A DNA stretch of 29,850 nucleotides from a virus, in IMG/VR virus record IMGVR_UViG_3300017714_000099, positions 1-29,850 of that record; one strand, written 5' to 3'. Position numbers and translations under genes: made by a program. A model generated the notes under the pieces. The model saw nothing but the letters and a program-made list of their open reading frames with translations. It had not been told where the DNA came from and ran no database searches. Of the stretch, positions 12,661 to 29,850 are shown piece by piece. Within the stretch, counting starts at the first letter, position 1. Each line of letters opens with the position of its first letter.

Positions 12661-13044
12661 ATGGCAGAAAATATTAGATATATAGACTCTTTAAAAGTAG
12701 GAGCTTATGAAACAGACACACAAGGGGTCACTATATTAAATAATATTGACCATTATGTTATAACTGCTACAGGCACAGAACAAACAGTTAGAGGTAATCC
12801 TGAATTGTATTTTGACAATTTAAATTTAGGAATAGGAACCCAATCACCCGTTGCAAGATTAGAAGTAAATCATAATAATAGTGTTGATGACATTTTAATA
12901 ATTAAAAATTCAGATAATAATACGGGATTAAAAGTAAATAAAGAAGGAACATTTCAATTATTAGAATTTTCTTCATTACCTACAGCAATAACAGGTGGTG
13001 TTGCATATTCAAATGATAATTTTTGGTTAGGAGTAGTTTCTTAG
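12661..13044 (+). CDS. Small fibre-associated structural protein (127 aa)
   Basis: The 127-aa protein contains LNLGIGTQSPVARLEVNHN (about residues 53-71). This is the 'GIGTxxPxxxLxV' motif that recurs in phage tail-fibre ectodomains and also appears in fibres C and D of this window. The rest is beta-prone with many Asn, Asp and Thr; there is no membrane segment. The gene stands alone between two promoter-like motifs. It could be a small virion protein, a fibre tip or a remnant of a larger fibre gene. The family motif supports a structural role, but the exact place in the virion cannot be read from the sequence. Confidence 0.65.
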   Translation: MAENIRYIDSLKVGAYETDTQGVTILNNIDHYVITATGTEQTVRGNPELYFDNLNLGIGTQSPVARLEVNHNNSVDDILIIKNSDNNTGLKVNKEGTFQLLEFSSLPTAITGGVAYSNDNFWLGVVS

Positions 13045-14683: not shown

Positions 14684-14752
14684 ATGTATTATTGGCCCGT
14701 AAGGGAAGTGGGTATCGCATTATTCGATATAACCAACCATAATGAAGTTAGT

Positions 14753-16654
14753 ATGCCAAATTGGAAAAAAGTCATTGTTAGCGGCTCGAATGCCGAATTA
14801 AATTCACTTAACGTAGCAAACGCAGTTACTGCGTCTCTATTTAAAGGAAATGGAGCAAACATAGTAGGAGTTATTTCTTCTTCTTATGCTTTAACCGCTT
14901 CTTTTGCCCCTAATACAGGAGTAACTTCTATTATAGCCGGAACTAATGTAAGTATAGATCAATCTACAGGGGATGTTACAATTTCATCTACTGGTGGTGG
15001 AGGAGGTGGAGGTACTTTTCCATTTGATGGAGATGCTGTAATTACAGGTTCTTTACTAGTATCACAATCTTTTGTAGATTTTACAGACTCAACTGGAGTA
15101 TCAGGTTCATTTAGTGGTTCTTTTACAGGAAATGGTAGTGGATTAACCAATTTAGATGTTCCTCAAGTTGCTACTGTAACTGCTTCATTTGCTAATACCA
15201 GTAGTATTACAATAAATCATAATTTAGATACTCAAAATATTATAGTATCTGTATATGATTCTGTAAGAGACCAAATAATACCTCAAACAACAAATTTAGT
15301 TGATAATGATAATGTTAGAGTCGATTTTGCTAATACTAGTTCAGGTTTTGTAGTTGTAGCAAAAGGTGGACATATTGTATCAGGATCTGTATTAGTACCT
15401 CAAATATCTACTGTAGCAGATTCATTTACATCTTCATTATCACATACCACAACCCATAATTTTGATACTAAAAATGTAATTGTATCTGTGTATACAGGTT
15501 CAGATGAAGTAATTATACCTTCTTCTATTACAACAACTACCGTAGATACTGTAACTGTTACTTTCCCTGAGGCAACAACAGGTAGACTTGTTGTAGTTAA
15601 AGCAGGACATATTGTATCAGGTTCGGCTTATAACTCAGATAGATTAAATAATCAATCAGGTTCATATTATTTAGATTATGATAATTTTACAAATATCCCT
15701 GAAGGAATAATATCAAGTTCTAACTTTCCAGATGGAGTAGTAATTACTGGGTCATTACTAGTATCACAATCTGTAGTTGATTTTACAGATGCAACTGCTA
15801 TCTCAGGTTCATCATTTTCTGGTTCTTTCTTTGGAGATGGTACTGGGTTAAGTGGATTAGGATATGGAGATACTAAAAAATTAAATCAAACAGTTCCTGC
15901 AACAACTTGGTCATTCTCTCATAACATGAATGAACAGTTTCCAACTGTTACAGTATATAATGCTTCAAATGATGTAATACAACCTTCAAAAATTGAAGCC
16001 CAAGATGCACAAACTTTAAAACTTTACTTTGGTTCTGCAACTGCTGGTACTGCTGTAGCAGTAGTAGGAGGAACTGCAACAACTCAAGAAGCAGGTTTTA
16101 ATAGAGTATTTACTCAAACCACAGTAGCTACTACTTGGTCATTTGAACATAATTTAGGAAATAGATATCCTCAACTATCAGTATTTGATTCAAATGGAGA
16201 ACTTGTTTCTCCAGGTAGAGTAGAAACAATAGATCAAAATAATTTAAATATATATTTTGATTCGGGACAATCAGGAATAGCTACAGCTACTGTAGGAGGT
16301 ACTTCTTTAACAGCATCATATGCTGAAAGTTTAACAATTAACGGTACTTCTCTAACTACAGGAGAAAATACTGATACAGATACAGGTACAGAAACGGTAA
16401 CGACCGTTTCTACTTTAACTCATGATAGTGCATTTTTTGATTATGTAGTAAATGATGGGACAAATTATAGAGCAGGAACAGTAATGTCAGTATGGGATGG
16501 TTCATCAGTTGAATATAATGACAATTCAACATCAGATATAGGAAATACATCAGGAGTAACAATGTCTGTGGATATATCAGGGACAGATGCTAGATTAAGA
16601 GCAACAGTAACATCAGATAATTGGGATATAAAAACATTTACAAGAGCGCTATAA
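14753..16654 (+). CDS. Tail-fibre protein with four beta-domain repeats (633 aa)
   Basis: I choose the ATG at 14753 (MPNWKKVIVSGS) because it matches the start of the 346-aa protein at 13101. An earlier in-frame ATG at 14684 would add 23 residues without such a match. After a seven-glycine hinge (about residues 81-87) and GSFSGSFTGNGSGLTNL come four related domains of about 70 residues, at roughly 139-211, 219-291, 377-441 and 452-518. Each has an H-N-[LFM] strand, a 'VYD/VFD' strand and a Val-rich end with Gly (for example WSFEHNLGNRYPQLSVFDSN). Such domains are common in phage fibres and probably form trimeric shaft or knob units. The C-terminus has no S74 domain. The stop is 1 nt before fibre A, so both are read from one message. 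Confidence 0.82.
   Translation: MPNWKKVIVSGSNAELNSLNVANAVTASLFKGNGANIVGVISSSYALTASFAPNTGVTSIIAGTNVSIDQSTGDVTISSTGGGGGGGTFPFDGDAVITGSLLVSQSFVDFTDSTGVSGSFSGSFTGNGSGLTNLDVPQVATVTASFANTSSITINHNLDTQNIIVSVYDSVRDQIIPQTTNLVDNDNVRVDFANTSSGFVVVAKGGHIVSGSVLVPQISTVADSFTSSLSHTTTHNFDTKNVIVSVYTGSDEVIIPSSITTTTVDTVTVTFPEATTGRLVVVKAGHIVSGSAYNSDRLNNQSGSYYLDYDNFTNIPEGIISSSNFPDGVVITGSLLVSQSVVDFTDATAISGSSFSGSFFGDGTGLSGLGYGDTKKLNQTVPATTWSFSHNMNEQFPTVTVYNASNDVIQPSKIEAQDAQTLKLYFGSATAGTAVAVVGGTATTQEAGFNRVFTQTTVATTWSFEHNLGNRYPQLSVFDSNGELVSPGRVETIDQNNLNIYFDSGQSGIATATVGGTSLTASYAESLTINGTSLTTGENTDTDTGTETVTTVSTLTHDSAFFDYVVNDGTNYRAGTVMSVWDGSSVEYNDNSTSDIGNTSGVTMSVDISGTDARLRATVTSDNWDIKTFTRAL
16390..16411 (+). other. Intragenic perfect hairpin (9-bp stem, AACG loop)
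   Basis: AGAAACGGT (16390-16398) pairs fully with ACCGTTTCT (16403-16411) around AACG, in the codons for TETVTTVS of the 633-aa fibre gene. It is much more GC-rich than its surroundings. There is no T-run, so it is not a terminator. It may be accidental or may modulate read-through into the fibre array. Confidence 0.4.
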
Positions 16655-16655
16655 C

Positions 16656-19600
16656 ATGAAAATATTTGATCCAAAATTAACGGGTAGTATAGAAATACTT
16701 AATGAGATAACAGGTGATGTTACTATGAGTGCTAATCTTTTAGTAGAAGGCAATTTATCAGGAAACATTACAGGTTCAGCTTCAACAGCTTCATATATAG
16801 AATTATCAAATGTAGACGGAAGTGCTTCTTTAGCAAGTAGAATTTTTGATAATTCCTCCTCTATTGCTTCTCTAGAAGCAGTAAGTGGATCGTACGCAAA
16901 TAGTGCTTCATTCGCTAGCAGCATATCTGCTAACTCGGCTTCAATTGCATCCCTCGAAAAGGTAAGCGGTTCATATGCTAATAGCGCTTCGTTCGCAAGT
17001 AATATATCTGCTAATTCGGCTTCAATAGGATCTTTAAACGCTGTTTCATCATCCTATTTACTAAACACAACAGACACTTTAACTGGAGACTTAACAGTAA
17101 CGGGTAATATTATAGCAACCACTTTAAACGTTCAAGACGTAACAGCTTCTGTTGTTTACTCAAGTGGAAGTAACGTATTTGGGTCAAGTTCAATAGATAC
17201 TCAACAATTTACGGGTTCAATTTTAACAACGGGAAGTATAGAAGTAACAGGCCCAATTACTTCAGGAGCTATAGTATCATCTGCAAGCATTACTGCAGCG
17301 GGTAATTCTAATAGTTTTGGTAATACAACTATAGGAGCATTATCAGCTTCAACAGGAACTTTTTCAGCAAGTGTTACAGCGGCGGGTAATTCTAACAGCC
17401 TTGGTACTACAACTTTTACAGGGAATATTACTTTAACAGGTGGTACAACTAGTGGATTAAACATTACAACTTCTGGAACACAAGATACTATTAAAATAAA
17501 TAGAGCAGCTAATAATGATAATGCAATAACAAAATATCAAACTGCAAGTGCTGATAAATGGATAGTAGGTTTACGAAATACGGGAGATGACAATTTTAGA
17601 TTTTATTCTTATGGTACTTCAAGTGATGTTTTAACTATTAATCAAGCAGATGGAAACTCAACTTTTGCAGGTATGATAACTGTTAATGGTGGTGGTATTG
17701 ATATTGATAATGATGATGATGTAAGATTAAGATTTGATAATGCAGGAACCTTTAAAGCAGGTTTACAAGTTGTAACTACAACAGGAGATATGATAGCAGG
17801 AAGTGCTGTTAATGATTTTGCTATACGTTCTCAAGGTAATATGCTTTTTGCAAGTGGTGGTAATACAGAAAGATTAAAATTAGATACATCAGGAAATGCA
17901 ACTTTTGTAGGAGATGTAACTGTACATAATTCCTCAGCAGGATATTCTGTAATTTCAGGAGATGGAAATGGTGCAATTTACTCTTCAAATGGCGATGTTC
18001 AATTTTTTACTAATAACTCGGCATATGCAATTAATTTTTATGCAGCAAATAAAGGGGATAAATTATTGACTATTGCTAATAATGGAGATACTATGATTGG
18101 CAATACTGTTGTTAATCCTGCAAGTGGATTTGCAAGTCAAAAAGGTTTTGGATATGATGGAGGTACAGGGCAAACACAAATTGCAACAACTGATAATGCT
18201 TCTACTTTAGTTTTAGGTAGAAATAATGCAACAGATGGAAGTATAATTGATTTAAGAAAAGAAAGTGGTGTAATTGGAACATTTGGAAGTAATACAACAG
18301 GTGGGGAACCATTATTAGATATTTCAGCAAATGCTACTAATGGAAATATGAGATTTGTAACTGCAGGGTCAGAAGCTTTGCGTATAGACAGTTCACAAAA
18401 TGTAAGAACTTATGCAAAATTAGGAATTAGAGTAGATGGAGATGCTATTTCTTGGAGAGGAACTGCTCAAATACCAGCAGTAATAAATCTTGCAGGAAAT
18501 GGTGCATTATTTACAAGACCTGACCAAACTTTTTTAAGTCAGAATTTTTATTATGATGCTAGTGATATTGGTGCAGTAATAGATGCAGGGCAAGGAGCTA
18601 TTGTGCAATGTAATGCAGGAGAAATTATATTTTCTGGAACTTCAACAGGTGCAAGTAGTAATGCACAAATTAGCATTATAGAGAGGATGCGTGTTACAAG
18701 TGGTGGGGATATAACAATATCAGGTGGAGATATATTTTTAAATAGTGGAACAAATTATAATGACAAAGGTGTTGTTTATTTATCTAATGAAAGAACCGCT
18801 ATAATTTCTGATATTGTAGATGGTACTGCTAATGGAGATACAAGTTTAGATTTTCAAACAAGAAAAGGTGGAACGAGAGCGTCCGCTATGTTTATCAATG
18901 AGTTTAGAAATGTAATGATAGGTACTACAACTCAAGCACCATCTGCTCAATTAACAATAGCATTAGAAGATAGCGTTGGTGGTAGATTATCATTAAGTAA
19001 TTTGAGAACTGCTTTATTTGATGGAGATGAATTTGGTAGATTATCATTTGTTAGTAATGATACAACTCAAACAGGAGATAGAGCAAGAATTTCAGCAGTA
19101 TGTAAAGATACAGGTGCAGCAACAGATTTAGTTTTTTATACAGGAAATACATCTGCATCAGTAGCAGATAGAATGCGTATTACAAGTGGGGGGAATATAG
19201 ATATTTCTAATGCTACAACAGGAAATGCAGGAACAAGAATATGGGGAGGTTCTGATGGGGGTATTATATATATGTACAGACCTGCAAATGGTGGAACAAA
19301 TGTATTAAGATTTTATGTAGGAACAACTTTAGTAGGAGATATAAGTACAACTAATACTGCTACTACTTATAATTCTGCTTCTGATTATAGATTAAAAGAA
19401 GATTTACAAGATTTTGCAGGTTTAGATATGGTTTCTAAAATACCTGTATATGACTTTAAATGGAAATCAGATGAAAGCAGAAGTTATGGAGTTATGGCTC
19501 ACGAACTACAAGAAGTTTTACCACAAGCTGTAAATGGAAAAAAAGATGCAGAAGAAATGCAGTCAGTTGATTATTCTAAAATTGTTCCTTTGTTAGTTAA

Positions 19601-19670
19601 GTCAATACAAGAACTAAAATCAGATAATGATAGCTTAAAAGCTAGGATAGAAACATTAGAAAATAATTAA
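16656..19670 (+). CDS. Fibre paralogue A: adaptor plus ectodomain plus S74 chaperone (1004 aa)
   Basis: MKIFDPKLTGSIEIL leads into the shared adaptor (residues 45-189) with two 27-residue units (77-103, 104-130). A long beta-rich ectodomain with many 'NxTFAG' and 'ADRMRITSGG' strands follows. The last 96 residues are a Peptidase_S74 intramolecular chaperone. It begins SDYRLKED with Ser909 and Lys914 at the spacing of the Ser-Lys dyad of the endosialidase chaperones, and ends in a coiled coil (VKSIQELKSDNDSLKARIE). In that family the chaperone trimerises the fibre and then cuts itself off before the Ser. The gene starts 1 nt after the preceding stop and has no promoter motif of its own. Receptor binding is inferred; the ligand is unknown. 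Confidence 0.85.
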   Translation: MKIFDPKLTGSIEILNEITGDVTMSANLLVEGNLSGNITGSASTASYIELSNVDGSASLASRIFDNSSSIASLEAVSGSYANSASFASSISANSASIASLEKVSGSYANSASFASNISANSASIGSLNAVSSSYLLNTTDTLTGDLTVTGNIIATTLNVQDVTASVVYSSGSNVFGSSSIDTQQFTGSILTTGSIEVTGPITSGAIVSSASITAAGNSNSFGNTTIGALSASTGTFSASVTAAGNSNSLGTTTFTGNITLTGGTTSGLNITTSGTQDTIKINRAANNDNAITKYQTASADKWIVGLRNTGDDNFRFYSYGTSSDVLTINQADGNSTFAGMITVNGGGIDIDNDDDVRLRFDNAGTFKAGLQVVTTTGDMIAGSAVNDFAIRSQGNMLFASGGNTERLKLDTSGNATFVGDVTVHNSSAGYSVISGDGNGAIYSSNGDVQFFTNNSAYAINFYAANKGDKLLTIANNGDTMIGNTVVNPASGFASQKGFGYDGGTGQTQIATTDNASTLVLGRNNATDGSIIDLRKESGVIGTFGSNTTGGEPLLDISANATNGNMRFVTAGSEALRIDSSQNVRTYAKLGIRVDGDAISWRGTAQIPAVINLAGNGALFTRPDQTFLSQNFYYDASDIGAVIDAGQGAIVQCNAGEIIFSGTSTGASSNAQISIIERMRVTSGGDITISGGDIFLNSGTNYNDKGVVYLSNERTAIISDIVDGTANGDTSLDFQTRKGGTRASAMFINEFRNVMIGTTTQAPSAQLTIALEDSVGGRLSLSNLRTALFDGDEFGRLSFVSNDTTQTGDRARISAVCKDTGAATDLVFYTGNTSASVADRMRITSGGNIDISNATTGNAGTRIWGGSDGGIIYMYRPANGGTNVLRFYVGTTLVGDISTTNTATTYNSASDYRLKEDLQDFAGLDMVSKIPVYDFKWKSDESRSYGVMAHELQEVLPQAVNGKKDAEEMQSVDYSKIVPLLVKSIQELKSDNDSLKARIETLENN
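16788..17222 (+). repeat. Shared fibre adaptor module, copy A
   Basis: Encodes ASYIELSNVDGSASLASRIF, then two 27-residue units, then SSSYLLNTTDTLTGDLTVTG through to TQQFTGSI. The same module is present in B (19822-20337), C (23192-23545) and D (26429-26863), and in E from 29537 without its first 20 residues. The protein is nearly invariant; the DNA differs mostly at third positions. Confidence 0.9.
16884..17045 (+). repeat. 81-bp unit, two copies in fibre A
   Basis: Units at 16884-16964 and 16965-17045, each 27 codons starting SGSYANSASFAS and ending SLExV or SLNAV. In the first 12 residues the two copies encode the same peptide, yet nine of the twelve codons differ. The Ser/Ala-rich unit with spaced Ile, Leu, Val, Tyr and Phe may form a trimeric helix. 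Confidence 0.9.
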
Positions 19671-19680
19671 TATTTAAAAA

Positions 19681-19690
19681 ATATTTATAA
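19681..19690 (+). promoter_or_regulatory. Candidate late-promoter motif before fibre B
   Basis: Exact ATATTTATAA in the 34-nt gap between A and B, ending 14 nt before the ATG at 19705, with TATAATAAA on the plus strand. It would give fibre B and the two following small genes their own promoter. Confidence 0.5.
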
Positions 19691-19704
19691 TAAAAATATA
19701 ATAT

Positions 19705-22545
19705 ATGAAAATTTTTGATCCCGTAGGATTTAGTTCAAAATTAACAGGTTCCTTTTCTGGTTCTTTTACAGGAGATGGTTCAAGTTTAACAGGAACTATT
19801 TCTTCTTCAATAGCAACAACGGCATCTTATATAAAATTATCAAATGTAGATGGAAGTGCTTCTTTAGCAAGTAGAATTTTTACTAATTCTTCTTCAATTG
19901 GATCTTTAAATGCTGCAAGTGGATCCTATGCTAATAGTGCTTCATTCGCTAGTGATATATCTACTAATTCTGCTTCAATAGCATCTTTAGAAACAGTAAG
20001 TGGATCTTATGCTAATAGTGCCTCGTTTGCAAGTGACATATCTACAAATTCGGCTTCAATAGCATCTTTAGAAACAGTAAGTGGATCTTATGCTAATAGT
20101 GCTTCATTTGCAAGTAGTATATCTGCTAATTCTTCTTCAATAGGATCTTTAAACGCTGTTTCATCCTCTTATCTTTTAAATACAACAGACACTTTAACCG
20201 GTGATTTAACTGTAACAGGCAACATAATAGCAACTACTCTAAACGTACAAGACGTAACAGCTTCGGTTGTTTATTCAAGTGGTTCCAATATATTCGGATC
20301 TAGTTCAATAGATACTCAACAATTTACGGGTTCAATAAAAGTAAGTGGTAGTGTTGATTTACAGGCTGGAGACGCAATTTTTGCTGGTAGTGTTACTGCA
20401 AATTCTTTAACAGTAGATGATATAACCATCGATGGTAGCACTATATCAGACAGTAGCGCTTTAACAATAAGTAGTGGTGATGATATTACAATAGATGCCG
20501 ACTCTGATATTAACTTAGATGCTAATGGTGCAGATATAAGATTTAAAGATAACGGAACTGCTTTTGTTGAATTTAATTCATCTACTGGAACAGCTTTTGC
20601 AGGAACAATTTCTACTGTAGGAGCATCTACTTTTAATTTGGGAGAAGGTGTTTTTACAAAAGCAGTTAATACAAGTAATGCAATTGCAAGTTCAAATGTT
20701 TGGGGTTATGGTTTATATGAAGGTGCAAGTAGAATAGGAGAATTTAGTATGGTTAGAGATGGGAGTTCTTCTGTATATGTTGGAACTTCTTTTGCAGGTC
20801 AAAAATTAATATTAGGAACTGCTGCTAAAGTTACTGCATTAACAATAGATGCATCACAAAACTCAACTTTTGCAGGTGAAGTTACTTTATCAACAGAAAC
20901 CCAATATTTAAACTTTAAAAAAGCATCTACAGCCGATATACTTTCAACAATAGTTTCAGAAACAGATGCAGGAACTGGTGGTAAATTAAGGTTTTTAACA
21001 AAAAGAAATGGAGATACTCAAGTTAATGCTTTAATTCTTGACGATAATCAAAACGCAACTTTTTCAGGAAATGTAGGAATAGGAGCAACAGGATTATATT
21101 CAACAGACAGGGCATTAAATTTACCAGGAAAAGGAATATCTTTTAAAAATGATGTTAATGGTTCTAATAATAATTGGAGTTACATTTACAATACTGATAC
21201 AGGAAGTGCTTCTAATTTAGTTTTTGCAACAGGTGCTTCTTTAACTGCTTTAACTTTATCACATAGTGGAACAGCAACTTTTGCAGAAGATGTAGAAATA
21301 AGAAGTGGAAATAAACTTATTTTACAAAGACCAAATAATGGGGTGGCAACTGAAATATCTACTGATTCTACAGGTGCTATGATATTAAATAGTATAAATG
21401 TTGAGGGATTCTTTTTTAATAATGCAGGAACAACCGCTTTTAAACTTGACCCAACTAACGCAACTTTTGTAGGAAATGTAACAACAGGCCCCACAATATC
21501 TTTAACATCAGATAATGATACAGGATATACAAATTCAAGAGTAATTTTAAATGCTACTGAATCAACATCAAGGGGAGCAGGGATATTTTGTTTTAATTCT
21601 GCTGATGACATAGAATGGTATTCAGGATTAGGTTATGCTACAAATGATTTTATAATATCTTATAAATCTACAACATCTCATACTGATGAAACTGCAGACC
21701 AATCACTTGCTAAATTTAAAATAACTACTTTAGGAAGCGCAACTTTTAACGGAACAGGTGGTACTACTAACGTAACAGTATATGATGGCTCTGGTAATTC
21801 AGAGGTAGGATTAAAACTGCAAGGTGATGCTGCAACTTGGACTTTACAAAATTGGGGAAGTGGTGGAGATAAGTTAAGAGTTTTAAACAACGCTGGATCG
21901 TCTATGCAAGTTTGGGAAGATGACGGATCCGTAATATTTGGGGGTACTGATATAAATGGTTCTTATGGTGCAAGCAATACAATATTAGCAGTACAAGGTT
22001 CAACATCAGGTGGTGAAGGTATTATACAAATAACAGGTAAAGGAAATAACGCAACAGATAATGTTGGTAAAATTGATTTCCATAGTTACTCTGAAGCAGA
22101 TCCAATGTGTTCTATTAGGTCAATTAGAGGGTCAGCAGATGATCAGGGCGAGTTACAATTACTCACCAATAGTGGGGGAACTATACAAGAGAGATTAACT
22201 ATTTCTAAAGATGGACTTGTTTTTATAAATAAAGATGGTTTTGCTGATGGTGGACTTATTACTGGTTTTAGAACTGCTATTTCTGTTGGACAAAGTGCAG
22301 TTGCTATTGGAAAAGTTGCTACTTATGGTGGATTAGCTATGGTTTGGATGAATTATGCAGGTAATATTGGTTATGATTTAGTTTCTTATTCACTTTCACA
22401 AGTTACTGTATTATCTTCTCAAGCAATATCAGGTGGAACTTCATCAAGAACTTACACATCAGTTTCAGGAGTTTTAAAATTAACAATGGGTGGGTCAGAT
22501 ACTTATAGTGTATATGCAACCGAAATCAGAACAGCGAATACTTAA
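19705..22545 (+). CDS. Fibre paralogue B: adaptor plus ectodomain, no S74 domain (946 aa)
   Basis: It begins MKIFDP like A, then a spacer LTGSFSGSFTGDGSSLTG and the shared adaptor (residues 40-211) with three 27-residue units. Beyond the junction the ectodomain resembles C for about 14 residues (IKVSGSVDLQAGDA) and then goes its own way, with 'VGIGATG' and 'NxTFxG' strands. The C-terminus (about residues 846-946) lacks the SDxRxK motif and the coiled coil of A, C and D. It is instead a Ser/Thr/Tyr-rich beta domain (SYSLSQVTVLSSQAISGG...). Folding may therefore need a separate chaperone; the two small genes directly after it are candidates. The role as an alternative receptor-binding fibre is inferred. 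Confidence 0.83.
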   Translation: MKIFDPVGFSSKLTGSFSGSFTGDGSSLTGTISSSIATTASYIKLSNVDGSASLASRIFTNSSSIGSLNAASGSYANSASFASDISTNSASIASLETVSGSYANSASFASDISTNSASIASLETVSGSYANSASFASSISANSSSIGSLNAVSSSYLLNTTDTLTGDLTVTGNIIATTLNVQDVTASVVYSSGSNIFGSSSIDTQQFTGSIKVSGSVDLQAGDAIFAGSVTANSLTVDDITIDGSTISDSSALTISSGDDITIDADSDINLDANGADIRFKDNGTAFVEFNSSTGTAFAGTISTVGASTFNLGEGVFTKAVNTSNAIASSNVWGYGLYEGASRIGEFSMVRDGSSSVYVGTSFAGQKLILGTAAKVTALTIDASQNSTFAGEVTLSTETQYLNFKKASTADILSTIVSETDAGTGGKLRFLTKRNGDTQVNALILDDNQNATFSGNVGIGATGLYSTDRALNLPGKGISFKNDVNGSNNNWSYIYNTDTGSASNLVFATGASLTALTLSHSGTATFAEDVEIRSGNKLILQRPNNGVATEISTDSTGAMILNSINVEGFFFNNAGTTAFKLDPTNATFVGNVTTGPTISLTSDNDTGYTNSRVILNATESTSRGAGIFCFNSADDIEWYSGLGYATNDFIISYKSTTSHTDETADQSLAKFKITTLGSATFNGTGGTTNVTVYDGSGNSEVGLKLQGDAATWTLQNWGSGGDKLRVLNNAGSSMQVWEDDGSVIFGGTDINGSYGASNTILAVQGSTSGGEGIIQITGKGNNATDNVGKIDFHSYSEADPMCSIRSIRGSADDQGELQLLTNSGGTIQERLTISKDGLVFINKDGFADGGLITGFRTAISVGQSAVAIGKVATYGGLAMVWMNYAGNIGYDLVSYSLSQVTVLSSQAISGGTSSRTYTSVSGVLKLTMGGSDTYSVYATEIRTANT
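19822..20337 (+). repeat. Shared fibre adaptor module, copy B
   Basis: Same protein module as in A, C and D but with three 27-residue units and SNIFGSSS instead of SNVFGSSS. Its last part is identical at DNA level to copy C for 79 bp, across the junction to the ectodomain. Confidence 0.9.
19918..20160 (+). repeat. 81-bp unit, three tandem copies in fibre B
   Basis: Units at 19918-19998, 19999-20079 and 20080-20160 encoding SGSYANSASFAS-type 27-residue repeats. The first two encode the same peptide (DISTNSASIASLETV in their second halves) with scattered synonymous changes. Confidence 0.9.
20299..20377 (+). repeat. 79-bp perfect repeat shared with fibre C (copy in B)
   Basis: Identical base for base with 23507-23585. 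It spans the end of the adaptor (GSSSIDTQQFTGSI) and the first ectodomain residues (KVSGSVDLQAGDA). Flanks on both sides differ immediately. Confidence 0.88.
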
Positions 22546-22556
22546 AATTAAAAATT

Positions 22557-22820
22557 ATGAATATAAAATGGAAAGCTAAAATATGTTCTGGAATGGATGT
22601 AGTTGAAAAAATAAACTTTATTAAAGAAGGTATAGATTCAGATGGTAAAAAATATACAGCAAATTCTGTATATGTACCATCAGCAGATGATCAATATAAA
22701 ACCAGAGAAGAATGGCTACAATCTGAAATAGATGAAATAGCAGATAAACTATCAAATGATTTAGATGAGTCTATAATTGCTCAAAGTAAATTTAAAATAG
22801 AAGAAACGATTAAAAAATAA
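22557..22820 (+). CDS. Small acidic protein following fibre B (87 aa)
   Basis: The 87-aa product (MNIKWKAKICSGMDVVEKIN...) has a predicted beta N-terminal half (IKEGIDSDGKKYTANSVYVP) and a helical, acidic C-terminal half (REEWLQSEIDEIADKLSNDL). No family is recognised. It starts 11 nt after the stop of fibre B with an A-rich leader. Since B alone among the complete paralogues lacks a built-in S74 chaperone, this gene and the next could act in its assembly, as separate assembly proteins do for some other phage fibres. That link is positional only. Confidence 0.65.
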   Translation: MNIKWKAKICSGMDVVEKINFIKEGIDSDGKKYTANSVYVPSADDQYKTREEWLQSEIDEIADKLSNDLDESIIAQSKFKIEETIKK

Positions 22821-22829
22821 ATAAATAAA

Positions 22830-23003
22830 ATGGCATATTTAATTTTAAAACAATTCGATCCTTTAAGTATTCATGTTTGGGTAGAAAAATTGTCAGATAG
22901 TGATCCTAGATATATTTATGATACTTTACCTGAAGCAGAAGCTAAAAAATTAGAATTAGAAAACGATGATCCTTCTCGTGAATATAAAATAGAAGAGGTT
23001 TAG
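22830..23003 (+). CDS. Very small protein following fibre B (57 aa)
   Basis: The ATG at 22830 opens a 57-codon frame ending with TAG at 23001. The product is MAYLILKQFDPLSIHVWVEK and then an acidic helical part rich in Glu and Asp, ending REYKIEEV. The start is 9 nt after the preceding stop and is preceded by AATAAATAAA, like the other starts in this window. Codon use is typical of neighbouring genes, and the space is otherwise empty up to a promoter motif at 23007. There is no recognised family. With the 87-aa gene it forms a cluster tied to fibre B. Confidence 0.65.
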   Translation: MAYLILKQFDPLSIHVWVEKLSDSDPRYIYDTLPEAEAKKLELENDDPSREYKIEEV

Positions 23004-23006
23004 TAC

Positions 23007-23016
23007 ATATTTATAA
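23007..23016 (+). promoter_or_regulatory. Candidate late-promoter motif before fibre C
   Basis: Exact ATATTTATAA followed by TAAA, 40 nt before the ATG at 23057. A six-C tract (23023-23028) lies 6 nt downstream of the motif, and AAAAAAGGAC near 23041-23050 is the nearest thing to a Shine-Dalgarno element in the window. Confidence 0.5.
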
Positions 23017-23056
23017 TAAATTCCCCCCTTTTGGACAGTGAAAAAAGGACAAAAAT

Positions 23057-26000
23057 ATGGCAAACGAATTTATTATACGTAAGGGCTTTAAGTCTTTACA
23101 AGACTCTCAAATAACTGGATCCTTAAATTTATCTGGAGACCTAGAAGTTCTAGGTTCTATAAGCGGAGATATTACCGGATCAGCATCAACAGCATCTTAT
23201 ATAGAACTTTCAAATGTAGATGGAAGTGCTTCTTTAGCAAGTAGAATTTTTACTAATTCTTCTTCAATAGCATCCTTAGAAATAGTAAGTGGGTCTTACG
23301 CAAACAGTGCTTCATTCGCTAGTAGTATATCTTCTAACTCATCTTCATTAGGATCTTTAAATGCCGTAAGTTCGTCTTATTTACTAAACACAACAGACAC
23401 TTTAACCGGGGATTTAACCGTAACAGGTAATATTATAGCCACTACTTTAAATGTTCAAGACGTAACAGCTTCTGTTGTTTACTCAAGTGGAAGTAACGTA
23501 TTTGGTTCTAGTTCAATAGATACTCAACAATTTACGGGTTCAATAAAAGTAAGTGGTAGTGTTGATTTACAGGCTGGAGACGCAACTTTTGCAGGAAAAG
23601 TTATTGCTTCAAATGGAATTGAAGTCACTGGTGGTTCTACTGGCGCAGATATTTATATTAATAATACATCCCCTACATTGGGTTTTACAGATACAAATTC
23701 ATTTACTGATCCAAGTGACATTTATATAATAAGATCGACAAGTGGTGATAAATTGCAGTTTCAATGGTATGATGATAGTGCTGGCACTACAACAGAAACT
23801 TTTAATATAGACAATACAGGTAACGCAACTTTTGAAGGAGATGTTGGAATGGGTAAATTAACTGCAACTAAATCAGGAACAGCAGCAGTTTTTAATTCAG
23901 GAACTACTAATGTAGTAGCAAGTTTTACAAGTACAGATGGAACAGGCGTAATACAATGTGCTGATGATGGTGGTAATGTAGAATTTGGAGCAGCAGGAAA
24001 TAATTTTGTAGTACAACCTGCAGGCGGTGTTGCTCAATTAACAGTAGGAGCATCAAACTCAATTTTTACAGGAGACGTAGGAATAGGAACTGGTGGATAT
24101 GCTCAAAAACCTCTTGATATTTCAGGTGCAACAGGTGGGCAAGTTTTAATAACTGGGGCAGATGATGCAGTAGGAACAACAGCAGGTATATTGCTTAGAG
24201 CAGAGGGTGGTGAAGCTAATGGTTTGGCAAGAGTAAAAGGTGGAATTTTCTTTGAAAGAATAGCAGGAACTTATGGAAATGGAGATTTAAAATTTGCAAT
24301 TAATAGTAGTGCAAATAATGATATAGTTACAGTTGCTGATGTAAAAATGGCTATTACAAGTAATGGTACTTTAACAGTAGGAGGTGCAACTAATACAAGA
24401 TTAGTAACTACAATAACAGAAAATAGTATTATAGATTTAAACGTAATAGATGGCACAAGTACTGCAAGAGCCTTATCATTTTCAACAGGTGGAACTGCTA
24501 GAGTAGTTATAGATGCAAATGGTAGTGTATATAATAATAGTGGTACAGGTCAAACTTTTTTTGGATCAAATAATGCAGGAAATCCAAGTAGTGTTACAGG
24601 AGTTTCAAATTCAAGTTTTGGATATGGTGCAGGAAATGCTCTAACATCAGGATATCAAAATGTTTCAGTAGGTAGAGATGCTGGTGGTGTATTAACTACA
24701 GGGTTAAATAATGTTAGCGTTGGAACTAATGCAGGTTATAATAATGTAGATGGCCAACAAAACACTTATGTAGGTACAGCTTCAGGTTATGTTTCTCCTG
24801 GTCAAAATTACAATACTTTTGTAGGATATGAATCAGGACATAATAATACTGCAAATGAAAATACAGCAGTAGGTAGGTTATCATTACACGCTAACACTTC
24901 AGGTGTAAGAAATACAGCAATTGGTACTGAAAGTTTAAAGAGTAATCAAACAGGAGATGCAAATACGGCATTGGGTTATCAATCGTTATTTACTACAACT
25001 GGAGATAGAAATATAGCGATAGGAGACAGGGCAGGATATAATATCACAGCAGGTTCAATGAATATTGCTATTGGGTTTTTAGCTTTATCTGGTGGAACAG
25101 GAAATAGTTGTATTGCAATAGGAGATAATGCATTAAGTTCAGATGGAACTTTTGAAGAAAGTGTAGCAATTGGAGATTCGGCTTTACAAACTCAACAATC
25201 AGGAAGAAATCACGCATTTGGTTTTCACGCTTTACAAGATTTAACAACTGGAAATTACAATACTGCAGTAGGTGGAGAAGCAGGAGAAAATATTACAACT
25301 GGAACAGTTAATACTGCTGTTGGTACTTTTGCTTTAAGAACAGCTACAGATGCAGGTGGTCAAACAGCAGTAGGTTACCAAGCATTATATACATCTAATG
25401 GAAATGGAAATGTTGGAATGGGTCAACAAGCAGGTTATAGCATATCTACTGGAACTTTTAATATAGTTATAGGACATGAATGTGGGTTTGGATTAACAGG
25501 AGGTAACAATAATGTTCTTATTGGAGATAGAGCAGGTAGGGTTTTAGCTAATGGTATTGACAATGTTTTTATAGGTACTCAAGCAGCTTATAATAGAACA
25601 GGAGGAAATGAAAATACTTTTGTTGGAGAAAAAGCAAATGGTATTGGTATTGGTACAGGAAACAATAATACAGGTTTAGGTAGGTTTGTAGGTTACAAAT
25701 TAACAAGTGGTACAAAAAATACTTTTATTGGTCATCAATCAGGCTTAGAAGCAACAACTGCAGATAACAGTACATTTGTTGGAAAAAATGCAGGAAGTTT
25801 AGTTACAACAGGAGACAACAATACATTTATAGGGGAAGAAGCAGGTAGCAATGTAACTATTGGAGATAATAATGTTTGTCTTGGAAAAGACTCTGCAACA
25901 CCATCAAATTCATCTACAAATACAATTGTTTTAGGGAACTCCCTTATTCAATCTCTACAATGTCAAGTTCAAACTATTAGTGGTTTATCAGATGAAAGAG

Positions 26001-26278
26001 ATAAAACAAATATTAAAAATTCAGAATATGGTTTAGATTTAATTAATTCTTTAAGACCTGTTACTTTTGAATGGAATCAAAGAGATGGTAAAAAAATAGG
26101 TAAAAAAGATTTAGGATTTATTGCTCAAGACTTACAAAAAATAGATGATAAGCATTTAAGTTTAGTTAATGATGAAAACCCAGAAAAATTATTAGCATCT
26201 TATGGTAGATTAATTCCTGTATTAGTTAAGTCAATACAAGAACTAAAGGCTGAAATAGAAATATTAAAAAATAAATAA
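23057..26278 (+). CDS. Fibre paralogue C: adaptor, beta-roll ectodomain and S74 chaperone (1073 aa)
   Basis: It begins MANEFIIRKGFKSLQDSQIT, a start often seen in phage fibres, then the shared adaptor (residues 46-163) with a single 27-residue unit. After a variable region, residues about 500-960 are a long run of roughly 22-25 residue repeats with an 'NTxIGxxAGxxxTTG' pattern (for example NTAIGTESLKSNQTGDANTA). This resembles the head of trimeric autotransporter adhesins and should form a left-handed beta-roll. The final 96 residues are an S74 chaperone starting SDERDKTN, with Ser978 and Lys983 in dyad spacing and the coiled coil VKSIQELKAEIEILKNK. It shares its promoter with D and probably E. 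An adhesin function is inferred from the architecture. Confidence 0.86.
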   Translation: MANEFIIRKGFKSLQDSQITGSLNLSGDLEVLGSISGDITGSASTASYIELSNVDGSASLASRIFTNSSSIASLEIVSGSYANSASFASSISSNSSSLGSLNAVSSSYLLNTTDTLTGDLTVTGNIIATTLNVQDVTASVVYSSGSNVFGSSSIDTQQFTGSIKVSGSVDLQAGDATFAGKVIASNGIEVTGGSTGADIYINNTSPTLGFTDTNSFTDPSDIYIIRSTSGDKLQFQWYDDSAGTTTETFNIDNTGNATFEGDVGMGKLTATKSGTAAVFNSGTTNVVASFTSTDGTGVIQCADDGGNVEFGAAGNNFVVQPAGGVAQLTVGASNSIFTGDVGIGTGGYAQKPLDISGATGGQVLITGADDAVGTTAGILLRAEGGEANGLARVKGGIFFERIAGTYGNGDLKFAINSSANNDIVTVADVKMAITSNGTLTVGGATNTRLVTTITENSIIDLNVIDGTSTARALSFSTGGTARVVIDANGSVYNNSGTGQTFFGSNNAGNPSSVTGVSNSSFGYGAGNALTSGYQNVSVGRDAGGVLTTGLNNVSVGTNAGYNNVDGQQNTYVGTASGYVSPGQNYNTFVGYESGHNNTANENTAVGRLSLHANTSGVRNTAIGTESLKSNQTGDANTALGYQSLFTTTGDRNIAIGDRAGYNITAGSMNIAIGFLALSGGTGNSCIAIGDNALSSDGTFEESVAIGDSALQTQQSGRNHAFGFHALQDLTTGNYNTAVGGEAGENITTGTVNTAVGTFALRTATDAGGQTAVGYQALYTSNGNGNVGMGQQAGYSISTGTFNIVIGHECGFGLTGGNNNVLIGDRAGRVLANGIDNVFIGTQAAYNRTGGNENTFVGEKANGIGIGTGNNNTGLGRFVGYKLTSGTKNTFIGHQSGLEATTADNSTFVGKNAGSLVTTGDNNTFIGEEAGSNVTIGDNNVCLGKDSATPSNSSTNTIVLGNSLIQSLQCQVQTISGLSDERDKTNIKNSEYGLDLINSLRPVTFEWNQRDGKKIGKKDLGFIAQDLQKIDDKHLSLVNDENPEKLLASYGRLIPVLVKSIQELKAEIEILKNK
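23192..23545 (+). repeat. Shared fibre adaptor module, copy C
   Basis: Shortest version of the adaptor, with one 81-bp unit (23288-23368). It is otherwise the same protein as the other copies, with many synonymous base differences from A and D. Confidence 0.9.
23507..23585 (+). repeat. 79-bp perfect repeat shared with fibre B (copy in C)
   Basis: Identical to 20299-20377 in fibre B; see that copy. The repeat covers the adaptor-ectodomain junction. Confidence 0.88.
24552..25935 (+). repeat. Degenerate adhesin-head-type repeat array in fibre C
   Basis: About twenty degenerate copies of a roughly 22-25 codon repeat with a conserved 'N-T-x-[IVL]-G' core, such as NTAVGRLSLHANTSGVR. They are degenerate at DNA level, so the array is old or under selection to stay diverse. 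The fold is probably a trimeric left-handed beta-roll. Confidence 0.8.
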
Positions 26279-29200
26279 ATGAGATTAGATAACCCATCAA
26301 TATCAGGTTCTATTTCCTATTTAGGAGGAGGGACAAATACTATATCGGGAATAGATGCTAAAATAACAGGATCATTTACTGGTTCTTTTACTGGAGAAGT
26401 ATTAGGTACCTCTTCAATAGCAACAACGGCATCTTATATAAAATTATCAAACGTAGATGGAAGTGCTTCTTTAGCAAGTAGAATTACAATTAACTCGGCT
26501 TCAATTGCCTCCTTAGAAACAGTAAGTGGATCGTACGCAAATAGTGCTTCATTTGCAAGTAATATATCTGCTAACTCGGCTTCAATAGCATCCTTAGAAA
26601 CGGTAAGTGGATCGTACGCAAATAGTGCTTCATTCGCTAGTAATATATCTACAAATTCTTCTTCAATTGGATCATTAAATGCCGTAAGTTCATCTTATTT
26701 ACTAAACACAACAGACACATTAACCGGCGATTTAACAGTTACCGGCAACATTATAGCAACTACCCTAAACGTTCAGGATGTAACGGCTTCGGTTGTTTAT
26801 TCAAGCGGGAGTAACATATTTGGATCAAGTTCAATTGATACTCAACAATTTACGGGTTCAATTTTAACAAGTGGAAGTATAGAAGTAAATGGTGATAAGT
26901 TTACTGTTAGTGGAGCAACAGGAAATACCGTAGTTGGAGGAACATTAAATTCTGGTGCTATAACTTCTACAGGGACAATAACATCAACAAGTACAAGCAC
27001 GAACACTTTAGCTGGTAAATTAAGAATTAATGGAACAACAACAACTGGTTTAGAAATAGCATCTAGCTCTGGATCTTCTACAGGATTAAAATTATATAAT
27101 GATTCTTCAAATGATCATGCTTATATTTTAAATCATTATAATGGTAATTTAGCATTAGGAACTAACAATGCGGCTGTTATTACTTTAAATGGAACAACTG
27201 CAACTTTTGCAGGAGAATTAGTATCTATTAACGCAGGTCGTTATTTTAAAATACAAAATGCAGCAGGTAATGCTAATTTCCCAACGTACAGTTTTCAAAA
27301 CGATGGAAATACAGGAATATTAAGTGCATCTTCTGATAGTCTTGGTTTTATTACAGGAGGAACAACAGCACTTACATTAGATTCAGCTCAAGATGCCACT
27401 TTTGCAGGAAATTTAATTATACATAATACTTCAAATGCTCCTTTTATTGATTTTGTAGAAAGTGGAGCAACAAGTGATTCTAAAGCTAGAATTACAATGG
27501 ATCAAATTGATACAAATAATGGTACATTATTATTTGCTACTGAAAATGCAGGAACACTTTACAATCAATTCAAAATAACACAAACAGGAAATTTACTTTT
27601 AAGTAATGATGCTGCATCTTTTAACACATCAAATGCTAAATTAAATGTTTTACCTGCATCAAATGGTGTTTATCAACAATGGAATTATTCGCCTAGTAAT
27701 GAAAATTTTTCATTAAAATTAAAAGAAACAGTTACAAGTGGAAACGTAAGATATGTTTTTGATCAAATTAATAATTCAACAACATACGCAAATGCTTTAG
27801 TTTTTAATCAAGGAAACGTAGGAATAGGAACTGATGACCCTGGACAAAAATTACACGTTGAAGGTCGTGGTATTTTTGACAGTGGAGGATCTTCAGATAT
27901 ATTACAAATAATAAATGATAATGGTGGTGGAGTTTTTGGTATGACATCAAATTTATTTGCTTTAGATTTAGCTTCAACAAGTAACTTTAGAATAAGACAA
28001 GGAAGCTCAATACCATTATATCTTAAATCAGATGGAAATTTAGGTATTGGAACAGCTACACCTACAAATGGAAAAGTACAAATTCATACTGCTTCGGCTA
28101 TTTCATTTAGTCCTACTGTTTTTACAAGTGGTGCAAATCTAAGATTACAAACTGGAGGATCTGCAGGTACGGGTGTTACAACAGGTGTTTCCATGGGTGT
28201 AGGAGGAGCTGCTGAAGCATATATTGGAGCAGTGCAAAATGCATCTACTTATGCTGATATAGTTTTTCAAACATATAATGGTGCTTATGATGAAAGAATG
28301 CGTATAGACAGTGATGGAAATGTTAGTATTAAACAAGGAAAATTATCTATAGGTCAAAGCAGTGAAAATAACATAGCATATACAACAGGTGAAACTTGGA
28401 TAGGTTCTAATGGATTAAGATATAATTCAGGTTCAGATACTTTTGCAAGATCAAGTGCAACTGCCCAAGCAGCAATGATGGTTTTAACTACAACTGCTGA
28501 TGTTGAATTTTATACACAACCATCAACAAGCGATACAGGAACATATGCTTTGACTCCTAAAATGGTTATTAAAGGTAATGGAAATATAGGAATCGGAACA
28601 ACTAATCCTGATAACATATTACATATAGAAACTTCTAATGCTGGTGGTCCACAAATACAATTAGAAAGCACATCTGGTACGGCTAGTGCTGCTTTTATTA
28701 ATTTTGATAGCACTAGCTTACAATTGTCTACTCAAAGAGATATGGTAGATGGAGATTGGTACGATACATCAAAATCTTGGGGTGGAATAAGTATACAAGG
28801 TCCAGCAGGAGGCTCTTTCATTACTTTTAATACAGCAGCAGCATCAAATACCTCCCCTACAGAAAGAATGCGTATTACAAGTGGGGGATTATTGTTTGTA
28901 GGCGATACAAGTACTAATTATGGTTATTCTGCTCATCATATTGCAAATAGTGCTTCACAGGGATATGCTTTAATTGTTAGAAATTCAAATACTAGCACTA
29001 CAAATAATAGTGTAATTCAATTAAACCAAGCTACTACAGGGACTGATGGTTATTTTATGATTTGTAGACAAGGAGACCCAAATAGTGGAACAAATCGTTT
29101 ATTTATTTTTTCAAATGGAAATGTGCAAAATGTTAATAATTCTTATGCTGCAATTTCTGATGAAAGATTAAAAGAAAACATAGTAGATGCAACTCCAAAA

Positions 29201-29437
29201 TTAGATGACTTAATGAAAGTTAAGATTCGTAATTATAATTTTATTGGTCAAGAGGATAAACAAATAGGAGTTATAGCACAAGAAATTGAAAATGTATTCC
29301 CAAGTTTAGTAGAGGACACAAAAGAACCAGAAAGCGAGAAAACAACAAAATCAGTTAAGTATTCTGTGTTTGTTCCAATGCTTATAAAAGCAATACAAGA
29401 ACTAAAAGCAGAAATAGAAATATTAAAAAATAAATAA
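26279..29437 (+). CDS. Fibre paralogue D: adaptor plus ectodomain plus S74 chaperone (1052 aa)
   Basis: The ATG follows the stop of fibre C without a gap. MRLDNPSISGSISYLGGG and the spacer GSFTGSFTGE precede the shared adaptor (residues 51-195) with two 27-residue units. The ectodomain carries three 'GIGTxxPxxxLxI' motifs (NVGIGTDDPGQKLHVEG, NLGIGTATPTNGKVQIH, NIGIGTTNPDNILHIET) typical of phage fibres. It ends with a 93-residue S74 chaperone starting SDERLKEN, with Ser960 and Lys965 in dyad spacing and a coiled coil almost identical to that of C (KAIQELKAEIEILKNK). As in A, the part after the adaptor starts ILT-SGSIEV, so A/D and B/C form two junction types. Confidence 0.86.
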   Translation: MRLDNPSISGSISYLGGGTNTISGIDAKITGSFTGSFTGEVLGTSSIATTASYIKLSNVDGSASLASRITINSASIASLETVSGSYANSASFASNISANSASIASLETVSGSYANSASFASNISTNSSSIGSLNAVSSSYLLNTTDTLTGDLTVTGNIIATTLNVQDVTASVVYSSGSNIFGSSSIDTQQFTGSILTSGSIEVNGDKFTVSGATGNTVVGGTLNSGAITSTGTITSTSTSTNTLAGKLRINGTTTTGLEIASSSGSSTGLKLYNDSSNDHAYILNHYNGNLALGTNNAAVITLNGTTATFAGELVSINAGRYFKIQNAAGNANFPTYSFQNDGNTGILSASSDSLGFITGGTTALTLDSAQDATFAGNLIIHNTSNAPFIDFVESGATSDSKARITMDQIDTNNGTLLFATENAGTLYNQFKITQTGNLLLSNDAASFNTSNAKLNVLPASNGVYQQWNYSPSNENFSLKLKETVTSGNVRYVFDQINNSTTYANALVFNQGNVGIGTDDPGQKLHVEGRGIFDSGGSSDILQIINDNGGGVFGMTSNLFALDLASTSNFRIRQGSSIPLYLKSDGNLGIGTATPTNGKVQIHTASAISFSPTVFTSGANLRLQTGGSAGTGVTTGVSMGVGGAAEAYIGAVQNASTYADIVFQTYNGAYDERMRIDSDGNVSIKQGKLSIGQSSENNIAYTTGETWIGSNGLRYNSGSDTFARSSATAQAAMMVLTTTADVEFYTQPSTSDTGTYALTPKMVIKGNGNIGIGTTNPDNILHIETSNAGGPQIQLESTSGTASAAFINFDSTSLQLSTQRDMVDGDWYDTSKSWGGISIQGPAGGSFITFNTAAASNTSPTERMRITSGGLLFVGDTSTNYGYSAHHIANSASQGYALIVRNSNTSTTNNSVIQLNQATTGTDGYFMICRQGDPNSGTNRLFIFSNGNVQNVNNSYAAISDERLKENIVDATPKLDDLMKVKIRNYNFIGQEDKQIGVIAQEIENVFPSLVEDTKEPESEKTTKSVKYSVFVPMLIKAIQELKAEIEILKNK
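26429..26863 (+). repeat. Shared fibre adaptor module, copy D
   Basis: Contains two 81-bp units (26525-26605, 26606-26686). From the LNTTDT segment to GSI, comparison with copy A by hand gives 20 synonymous codon differences and one amino-acid change (Val/Ile) in 54 codons. Confidence 0.9.
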
Positions 29438-29446
29438 ATAGTAAAC

Positions 29447-29850
29447 ATGATAATATATGATGCAGACATAACGGGAAGTCTTAAAGTAAATGGTAGTGAT
29501 TTTAATTTAACATCAATATCAAGTTCAATTGTAACAAATTCATCTTCTATTGCTTCTTTAGAATTAGTAAGTGGATCCTATGCTAATAGTGCTTCATTTG
29601 CAAGTGACATATCTACTAACTCGGCTTCAATTGCATCCCTCGAAAAGGTAAGCGGTTCATATGCTAATAGCGCTTCATTCGCAAGTAGTATATCTGCTAA
29701 TTCTTCTTCAATAGGATCTTTAAATTCCGTAAGTGGGTCTTATGCAAATAGCGCTTCGTTCGCAAGTAATATATCTGCTAATTCGGCTTCAATAGGATCT
29801 TTAAACGCTGTTTCATCATCCTATTTACTAAACACAACAGACACTTTAAC
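29447..29850 (+). CDS. Fibre paralogue E, 3' truncated by window (134 aa visible)
   Basis: The ATG at 29447, 9 nt after the stop of D, opens a frame running to the window end: MIIYDADITGSLKVNGSDFN, then SISSSIVTNSSSIASLE. After this come three 27-residue adaptor units (29570-29650, 29651-29731, 29732-29812) and the beginning of SSSYLLNTTDTL. Compared with A-D it lacks the ASYIELSNVDG segment before the units. Its last 104 bp equal part of fibre A exactly. The missing remainder presumably holds another ectodomain; whether it ends in an S74 domain cannot be seen. Confidence 0.83.
   Translation, partial: MIIYDADITGSLKVNGSDFNLTSISSSIVTNSSSIASLELVSGSYANSASFASDISTNSASIASLEKVSGSYANSASFASSISANSSSIGSLNSVSGSYANSASFASNISANSASIGSLNAVSSSYLLNTTDTL
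29570..29812 (+). repeat. 81-bp unit, three tandem copies in fibre E
   Basis: Units at 29570-29650, 29651-29731 and 29732-29812. Parts of the first two are identical to the first unit of fibre A (61 bp, 29616-29676 with 16930-16990). The third is within a 104-bp block identical to A; part of the middle one matches the last unit of B. Confidence 0.88.
29747..29850 (+). repeat. At least 104-bp perfect repeat shared with fibre A (copy in E)
   Basis: Identical to 16980-17083 in fibre A and still running at the window end. Given how scrambled the codons are between most other copies, this stretch must have been exchanged or duplicated recently. Confidence 0.88.

What the first reader, a model, noticed from the sequence alone, without database searches (positions are those of the whole stretch)
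16656..29850. Tandem array of at least five fibre genes with one adaptor and different ectodomains
Genes A-D carry an almost invariant N-terminal module followed by unrelated ectodomains, and the visible part of E shares most of that module. Lying side by side, this looks like a receptor-binding repertoire: either several fibres mounted together or alternatives that swap onto one attachment point. Most T4-type phages carry far fewer long-fibre paralogues. The identical adaptor implies a single common docking partner.
Basis: partly seen in the sequence, partly recalled or inferred. Interest (0 to 1): 0.65.

Follow-up and report, generated by a model that had tools for sequence, protein, structure and literature searches.

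The report
Swappable tail-fibre array in T4-like phage
An uncultured aquatic T4-like virus of bacteria carries a row of five tail-fibre genes that share one inner shaft segment but have different starts and different outer ends, and sister viruses swap the outer ends at that segment, so this is a hot spot for changing how the virus recognises its host rather than one adaptor with interchangeable heads.

Summary
The array is real. Genes A–D and the visible start of E are five same-strand fibre genes. A–D share a 64-aa module with 0–1 amino-acid differences.

(1) The module is not the attachment end. Each gene has its own N-terminal tip in front of it. Across 71 fibre genes from related contigs, the best tip match lies in another phage 70 times, while the best module match lies in the same phage 35 times. 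The module sits anywhere from residue 5 to 2408, up to three times per protein, so it is an internal shaft element.

(2) The 633-aa protein is the portal (gp20), not a docking partner.

The array fills the interval between gp15 and the sheath gene gp18 of a virus distantly related to Flavobacterium phage immuto. That interval holds 0 to about 9 fibre genes in relatives. Four unrelated last-fibre ends occur in eight sister contigs with 96–100% identical sheath genes. Gene D of a sister phage switches to an unrelated ectodomain 57 nt after the module. A, C and D end in S74 chaperones.

Best reading: a mosaic fibre repertoire, probably co-mounted at separate sites, diversified by recombination through the shared module. 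New variant of a known kind.

The parts
1039..2940 (+). portal protein gp20 (the '633-aa protein'); not part of the fibre system
   Evidence: phrog_213 portal E 3.9e-60
9923..11071 (+). neck protein, gp13-like head-tail adaptor Ad2
   Evidence: phrog_211 E 7.6e-10
11603..12586 (+). tail terminator gp15; left border of the variable fibre interval
   Evidence: AlphaFold2 model from A4 (mean pLDDT 59); Foldseek top hits T4 gp15 4huh E 2e-6, probability 1.00
12661..13044 (+). X, 127-aa structural-type protein, conserved first gene of the interval
   Evidence: colinear in G001, G005 and L160-L162
13101..14141 (+). Y, fibre-like protein with MATWKKILVSGS tip
   Evidence: colinear in G001 and G005; relatives of this tip carry three copies of the module (L010)
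14684..16654 (+). Z, fibre-like protein with MPNWKK-type start and repeated domains
   Evidence: phrog_21918 E 2e-38 and phrog_16122 E 2.9e-29, 3-4 stretches; colinear in G001, G016, G017
16656..19670 (+). fibre gene A, 1004 aa
   Evidence: tail-fibre PHROG 5668 E 1.7e-27; Peptidase_S74 E 1.1e-12
16656..16745 (+). A tip MKIFDPKLTGSIEIL
   Evidence: best match in another phage, L038, 0.84 of self score
16851..17012 (+). A: two 27-aa NSxSIxSLxxVSGSYANSASFAS repeats
17031..17222 (+). A: shared 64-aa shaft module
19380..19532 (+). A: S74 chaperone/protease domain, SDYRLK at residue 909
19705..22545 (+). fibre gene B, 946 aa, no S74 domain
19885..20127 (+). B: three 27-aa repeats
20146..20337 (+). 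B: shared module
22557..22820 (+). 87-aa ORF between B and C, function unknown
   Evidence: no Pfam match over cut-off
22830..23003 (+). 57-aa ORF, in a stretch conserved before the C-type gene of L038; possible fibre accessory
23057..26278 (+). fibre gene C, 1073 aa
   Evidence: phrog_23837 E 5.4e-88, phrog_4636 tail spike E 2.8e-70
23354..23545 (+). C: shared module
24644..25936 (+). C: region of about 17 NTxxGxxAG repeats, YadA-head-like by motif
   Evidence: motif count; fold not tested
25988..26155 (+). C: S74 domain, SDERDK at residue 978
   Evidence: E 5.6e-14
26279..29437 (+). fibre gene D, 1052 aa
   Evidence: phrog_9942 tail fibre E 3e-29
26672..26863 (+). D: shared module
26921..26921 (.). 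junction where gene D and its sister-phage counterpart (L002) stop being homologous
   Evidence: identity 0.80-0.98 up to 26920, 0.15-0.57 after
29156..29311 (+). D: S74 domain, SDERLK at residue 960
   Evidence: E 1.5e-11
29447..29850 (+). fibre gene E, cut by the contig end (complete counterpart 1133 aa in L001)

Best explanation
This is a host-recognition cluster: a row of five mosaic trimeric fibre genes (plus three fibre-like genes X, Y, Z) inserted between the tail-terminator gene gp15 and the sheath gene gp18 of an uncultured virus in the Immutovirus/Far-T4 neighbourhood. Each gene is built as [gene-specific N-terminal tip]-[variable number of 27-aa repeats]-[64-aa shaft module shared within this genome]-[exchangeable ectodomain]-[S74 self-cleaving trimerisation chaperone, or another cap]. 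SHOWN: this anatomy, the location, the variation in gene number among relatives, the replacement of ectodomains between sister phages, and a replacement junction just past the module. INFERRED: the genes are expressed together as one late block, the different tips address fibres to different sites on the tail (or to each other), and the shared module acts as a shaft element and as the DNA homology through which incoming ectodomains are spliced on by ordinary phage recombination.
For: Module: 0-1 aa differences versus 17-27 third-position changes. It occurs 1-3 times per ORF at residues 5-2408 in 186 copies from related contigs, with no Pfam, PHROG or PDB match and none in bacterial genomes by one single-query scan. 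Tip/module dissociation: 71 genes, discordant 34:0, stable for tips of 20-40 aa. Location: gp15 by fold; sheath and tube by Pfam just downstream in sister L001 (the tube hit is below Pfam's own cut-off). Complete array in G001: gp15-X-Y-Z-five module genes-90-aa-type gene-sheath; empty interval in many contigs and in Mel-JY01. Swapping: four unrelated last-fibre ends beside 96-100% identical sheath genes, only about 85 nt of intergenic DNA shared; D junction at 26920/26921; the E gene of L001 carries a post-module segment of window D (90% nt identity). S74 with SDxxxK in A, C, D. No RT, no serine invertase, no notable inverted repeats.
Against: No virion data, so display and co-expression are not shown. 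B and the sister copy of E lack S74. 'One of each tip per genome' is only a trend (0 same-class pairs in 103 versus 2.6 expected, P 0.06, and not at looser clustering). Module homogeneity within a genome is not universal (L050, L040, L054 average 58-64% identity). Monomer structure prediction of the module region is poor (pLDDT 59, pTM 0.25).
Confidence: 0.6

Rival explanations
1. Branched complex: the fibres dock onto one another (one anchor fibre carrying the others), as in Ackermannviridae tail spikes, and the module or the tips are the fibre-to-fibre connectors.
For: Several receptor-type proteins encoded side by side with conserved N-terminal regions and variable ends, as in PMC11414711. 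Within-genome sameness of the module would suit a mutual contact surface.
Against: No gp10-like or XD-type domain found by Pfam or PDB sequence search. The predicted module region is extended rather than globular, although that model is weak.
Confidence: 0.2
2. One reading: a single common attachment point recognised by the identical module, with paralogues as alternatives competing for it.
For: Module protein sequence almost identical in A-D under strong purifying selection and more alike within a phage than between phages for about half of genes.
Against: Tips in front of the module are gene-specific and conserved across phages. The module is found deep inside shafts and up to three times per protein. 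The proposed partner is the portal.
Confidence: 0.12
3. The genes encode head, neck or whisker decorations rather than baseplate-borne adsorption fibres.
For: They lie beside neck genes, and some PHROG matches are labelled only 'virion structural protein'.
Against: The best-supported PHROG labels for A and D are tail fibre and for C include tail spike. S74 chaperones are typical of tail spikes and fibres. Rapid end replacement fits receptor binding.
Confidence: 0.08
4. Assembly artefact: chimeric joining through repeats created the apparent array or the apparent swaps.
For: The contig ends inside a 104-nt exact repeat of gene A, and sister contigs also break in this region.
Against: A complete colinear array occurs in an independent 113.7-kb contig. 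The D-end/E junction is reproduced in L001 from another contig. The same ectodomain type recurs in more than one contig (L080/L081, L082/L083, L085-L087).
Confidence: 0.03

Closest known systems
Hyperplastic region between g15 and g18 of T4-like cyanomyoviruses (PMC2984593, citing Millard 2009)
   Same: Same genomic site in the structural module, gp15 to gp18, with variable gene insertion.
   Different: In cyanophages it is described as holding 4-14 genes including metabolic genes, at a position called unique to cyanophages. Here it holds fibre genes, in non-cyanophage relatives too, and is often empty.
Host recognition cluster of pelagimyophages (PMC7029224) and metaviromic islands of marine phages (PMC3909814)
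   Same: Large hypervariable region with several tail fibres inside the structural module; fibre ends vary between near-identical phages.
   Different: That cluster lies between VrlC and gp14 and mixes in glycosyltransferases. Here it lies after gp15 and the genes share a common internal module.
Ackermannviridae branched tail-spike complex (PMC11414711)
   Same: Several adjacent receptor-binding genes with conserved N-terminal regions, variable ends, and recombination between neighbours.
   Different: No gp10-like XD domains detected here; the shared segment is an internal shaft module and the real tips differ.
Bdellovibrio mosaic adhesive trimer (MAT) fibres (PMC10769870)
   Same: Paralogous trimeric fibres of about 1000 aa, part with SDxxxK S74 ends and part without, with exchangeable tips; D residues 760-851 match Bd2133 (8ond) at E 9e-4.
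   Different: MATs are bacterial surface proteins with a signal peptide and one conserved N-terminal domain. Here they are phage genes with different tips per paralogue.
Flavobacterium phage immuto (Immutovirus), nearest cultured relative with Microcystis phage Mel-JY01
   Same: Same gene order; immuto also has fibre and structural genes between the gp15-like gene and the sheath.
   Different: Capsid protein only 58.7% and 50.5% identical. No module hit in the phages collection for gene A; one partial module hit in Mel-JY01, outside an otherwise empty gp15-gp18 interval.

Membership tests
S74 (endosialidase-type) chaperone-bearing phage fibres | C-terminal Peptidase_S74 domain above the Pfam cut-off | tested here: met
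   A, C, D score 48.4, 52.6, 44.9 bits against a cut-off of 22; B does not; the sister copy of E in L001 does not
S74 (endosialidase-type) chaperone-bearing phage fibres | SDxxxK catalytic motif at the domain start | tested here: met
   A909 SDYRLK, C978 SDERDK, D960 SDERLK; motif definition from PMC10769870
S74 (endosialidase-type) chaperone-bearing phage fibres | autoproteolysis and trimer formation | not testable with these tools
   needs expression and gels
T4-like (Far-T4/Immutovirus neighbourhood) structural module | conserved order terminase-portal-protease-capsid-gp13-gp15-(gp18-gp19) | tested here: met
   gp18/gp19 in sister contigs L001/L002
g15-g18 hyperplastic region | variable gene content between gp15 and gp18 | tested here: met
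   interval 0.3 to about 12 kb in spanning loci, 16 kb in G001, at least 17 kb in the window; empty in Mel-JY01
Ackermannviridae-type branched spike complex | gp10-like/XD connector domains | tested here: not met
   no Pfam match other than S74 above cut-off; module profile finds no gp10 in the PDB
Diversity-generating retroelement | reverse transcriptase in the genome | tested here: not met
   RVT_1 absent from the window and seven related contigs up to 177 kb, which may be fragments
Invertible fibre-switching cassette | serine invertase and inverted repeats flanking fibre ends | tested here: not met
   no PF00239 match; only weak, AT-rich or unrelated inverted repeats
   module starts at residues 100-148 behind gene-specific tips; internal and multiple in relatives

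The most novel reading that the evidence does not exclude
The 64-aa module is a genome-specific 'matching key'. In some phages (window, G001, G016) every fibre keeps almost the same module protein sequence although synonymous sites have diverged, while different phages have different versions. All fibres of one virion would then have to match one shared partner (an assembly chaperone, a collar, or each other), so that ectodomains are free to change but the module must change in all paralogues together.
Probability: 0.2. Interest if true: 0.65.

Novelty: new variant of a known kind. Interest (0 to 1): 0.47.

Why it matters
It gives a testable rule for how an abundant but barely cultivated group of T4-like phages may re-tool host recognition: gene-specific tips, one shaft module per genome, and free exchange of ends at the module boundary. 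It shows that the g15-g18 hyperplastic site, reported as specific to cyanophages, is also a fibre-array site in other T4-like phages. It also warns that short-read assemblies break inside these arrays, so fibre repertoires of such phages are undercounted in metagenomes.

Tried and rejected
Recent duplication or ongoing gene conversion as the full cause of module identity: rejected as the main cause, because synonymous sites differ at 17-27 of 64 codons. Local exact tracts (A-E 104 nt, B-C 79 nt) do suggest some exchange; the permutation P-values are rough because some compared flanks are not homologous.

DGR and invertible switching: no RT, no invertase, no notable inverted repeats.

gp15 by sequence: PDB profile search empty and hhalign inconclusive (E 0.074); solved by fold instead.

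Module structure: AlphaFold2 monomer gave pTM 0.25 with no secondary structure in the module; not sent to Foldseek.

'Each tip once per genome': only a trend.

Direct tblastn of the gene A N-terminal part in cultured phages: no match, probably partly because of low-complexity masking.

An early pattern search of G000 was exploratory and uninformative.
Full report
WHAT THE WINDOW IS. The window is an entire IMG/VR contig of 29,850 bases. It encodes a T4-like head-neck block: terminase fragment, portal (the 633-aa protein, phrog_213 E 3.9e-60), prohead protease, major capsid protein, gp13-like neck protein. The capsid protein is closest to Flavobacterium phage immuto (58.7%) and Microcystis phage Mel-JY01 (50.5%), and more distantly (33%) to Rhodothermus phage RM378, the reference of the 'Far-T4' phages (PMC4360716, PMC7198788). 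A Bacteroidota host is likely from these relatives but not shown. The ORF at 11603 had no family match. Its AlphaFold2 model (mean pLDDT 59) finds T4 gp15, the tail terminator, as best solved structure (E 2e-6, probability 1.00).

THE ARRAY. After gp15 come X, Y and Z, then five fibre genes A-E on the same strand. A-D contain a 64-residue module with 0-1 amino-acid differences, while 17-27 of 64 third codon positions differ. This means strong purifying selection on an old set of copies, not fresh duplication. In front of the module lie 1-3 complete 27-aa repeats, and in front of those lie tips that differ from gene to gene. A, C and D end in Peptidase_S74 chaperone domains with the SDxxxK motif; B ends differently. 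Gene C carries about 17 NTxxGxxAG repeats resembling a YadA-type head; this is motif evidence only.

THE MODULE IS A SHAFT ELEMENT. One scan of viral contigs with the module gave 165 relatives, of which 78 loci were kept. In these the module starts anywhere from residue 5 to 2408; 111 ORFs have one copy, 21 have two and 11 have three. It has no match in Pfam or PHROGs, no significant match in PDB sequences, and none by a single-query scan of one genome per bacterial or archaeal species. An AlphaFold2 monomer of the module region is poor and extended, as an intertwined trimeric shaft would be, but this is weak evidence.

TIPS AND MODULES BEHAVE DIFFERENTLY. For 71 fibre genes on contigs with at least two such genes, the best match of the first 30 residues lay in the same contig once, and the best module match lay in the same contig 35 times; discordant pairs were 34 to 0. 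The result holds for 20-, 30- and 40-residue tips and without the two sister contigs. Contig L038 carries A-, E-, D- and C-type tips in an order different from the window. The tips are therefore old, gene-specific and shared among phages, whereas the module is a property of the genome. It is tempting to say that each genome has one of each tip, but that is only a trend. Module homogeneity is also not universal: it averages 99% in the window, 94% in L006 (G001) and 92% in L036 (G016), but 58-64% in L050, L040 and L054.

LOCATION AND SIZE VARIATION. Sister contig L001 continues from the end of D through a complete 1133-aa E gene, a 90-aa gene, the sheath (Phage_sheath_1, E 7.5e-13) and a gp19-like tube protein. 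The window's array thus probably ends with E. Contig G001 (113.7 kb) spans a complete colinear array: gp15, X, Y, Z, five module genes (four with S74), a 90-aa-type gene, sheath. G017 has eight module genes and one more S74 gene, and G016 has seven module genes. Many relatives have only 0.3-0.5 kb between gp15 and sheath, and Mel-JY01 is empty there. The same interval is a known hyperplastic region in cyanomyoviruses, where it was called unique to cyanophages (PMC2984593).

ENDS ARE SWAPPED. Eight sister contigs with 96-100% identical sheath genes have four unrelated last-fibre ends, sharing only about 85 nt of intergenic DNA. The D gene of sister L002 is 80-98% identical to window D from its start to 26920 and unrelated afterwards; the module ends at 26863. 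The E gene of L001 carries, after its module, a segment found after the module of window D. Exact tracts of 104 nt (A-E) and 79 nt (B-C) inside 83-90% identical DNA suggest exchange between array members as well. No reverse transcriptase, serine invertase or notable inverted repeats were found, so a dedicated switching device is unlikely.

HOW IT PROBABLY WORKS. Shown: anatomy, location, number variation, end replacement, junction position. Inferred: the genes are read as one late block (gaps of 0-34 nt apart from the B-C stretch with two small ORFs); each fibre is addressed by its own tip; S74 parts cut themselves off after trimer folding; and the shared module supplies homology for recombination that brings in new ends. 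The alternatives are a branched fibre-on-fibre complex (20%), the single-adaptor model (12%), decoration fibres (8%) and assembly artefact (3%).

RELATION TO KNOWN SYSTEMS. It works like other host-recognition clusters of marine T4-like phages (PMC7029224, PMC3909814) and resembles the mosaic S74/non-S74 fibres of Bdellovibrio (PMC10769870; D matches Bd2133 at E 9e-4). It fails the tested marker of the Ackermannviridae branched complex, since no gp10-like domain was found. Within the papers searched I found no description of such module-sharing arrays at this site; subscription literature was not searchable.

VERDICT. The new part is the separation of conserved gene-specific tips from a genome-specific shared shaft module, at a fibre insertion site between gp15 and gp18.

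Noticed in passing
29747-29850 and 16980-17083: The last 104 nt of the contig are identical to a stretch of gene A, so the contig ends inside a repeat; sister contigs also break in this region.
   Followed up: partly
14684-16654: Gene Z contains a repeated domain (TWSFxHNxxxxxPxVxVYD...-type) matching phrog_21918 and phrog_16122 in several stretches; it may be a carbohydrate-binding-like repeat.
   Followed up: no
22830-23003: 57-aa ORF directly upstream of gene C, in a stretch also conserved before the C-type gene of L038 although gene order differs; possible fibre accessory or chaperone.
   Followed up: no
L011 2286-8555, L021 4954-11520, L034 3000-9683: In some relatives one giant fibre protein (over 2000 aa) carries three module copies, as if several array genes had fused, or one had split in the window's lineage.
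   Followed up: no
L085 and L086: Two contigs with 99.9% identical sheath DNA differ inside the last fibre: L085 keeps a B-type end, L086 has a segment related to gene C instead.
   Followed up: partly
PP395634.1 3410-3517: The only cultured phage found with the module (Microcystis phage Mel-JY01) carries it in a structural protein far from its empty gp15-gp18 interval.
   Followed up: partly
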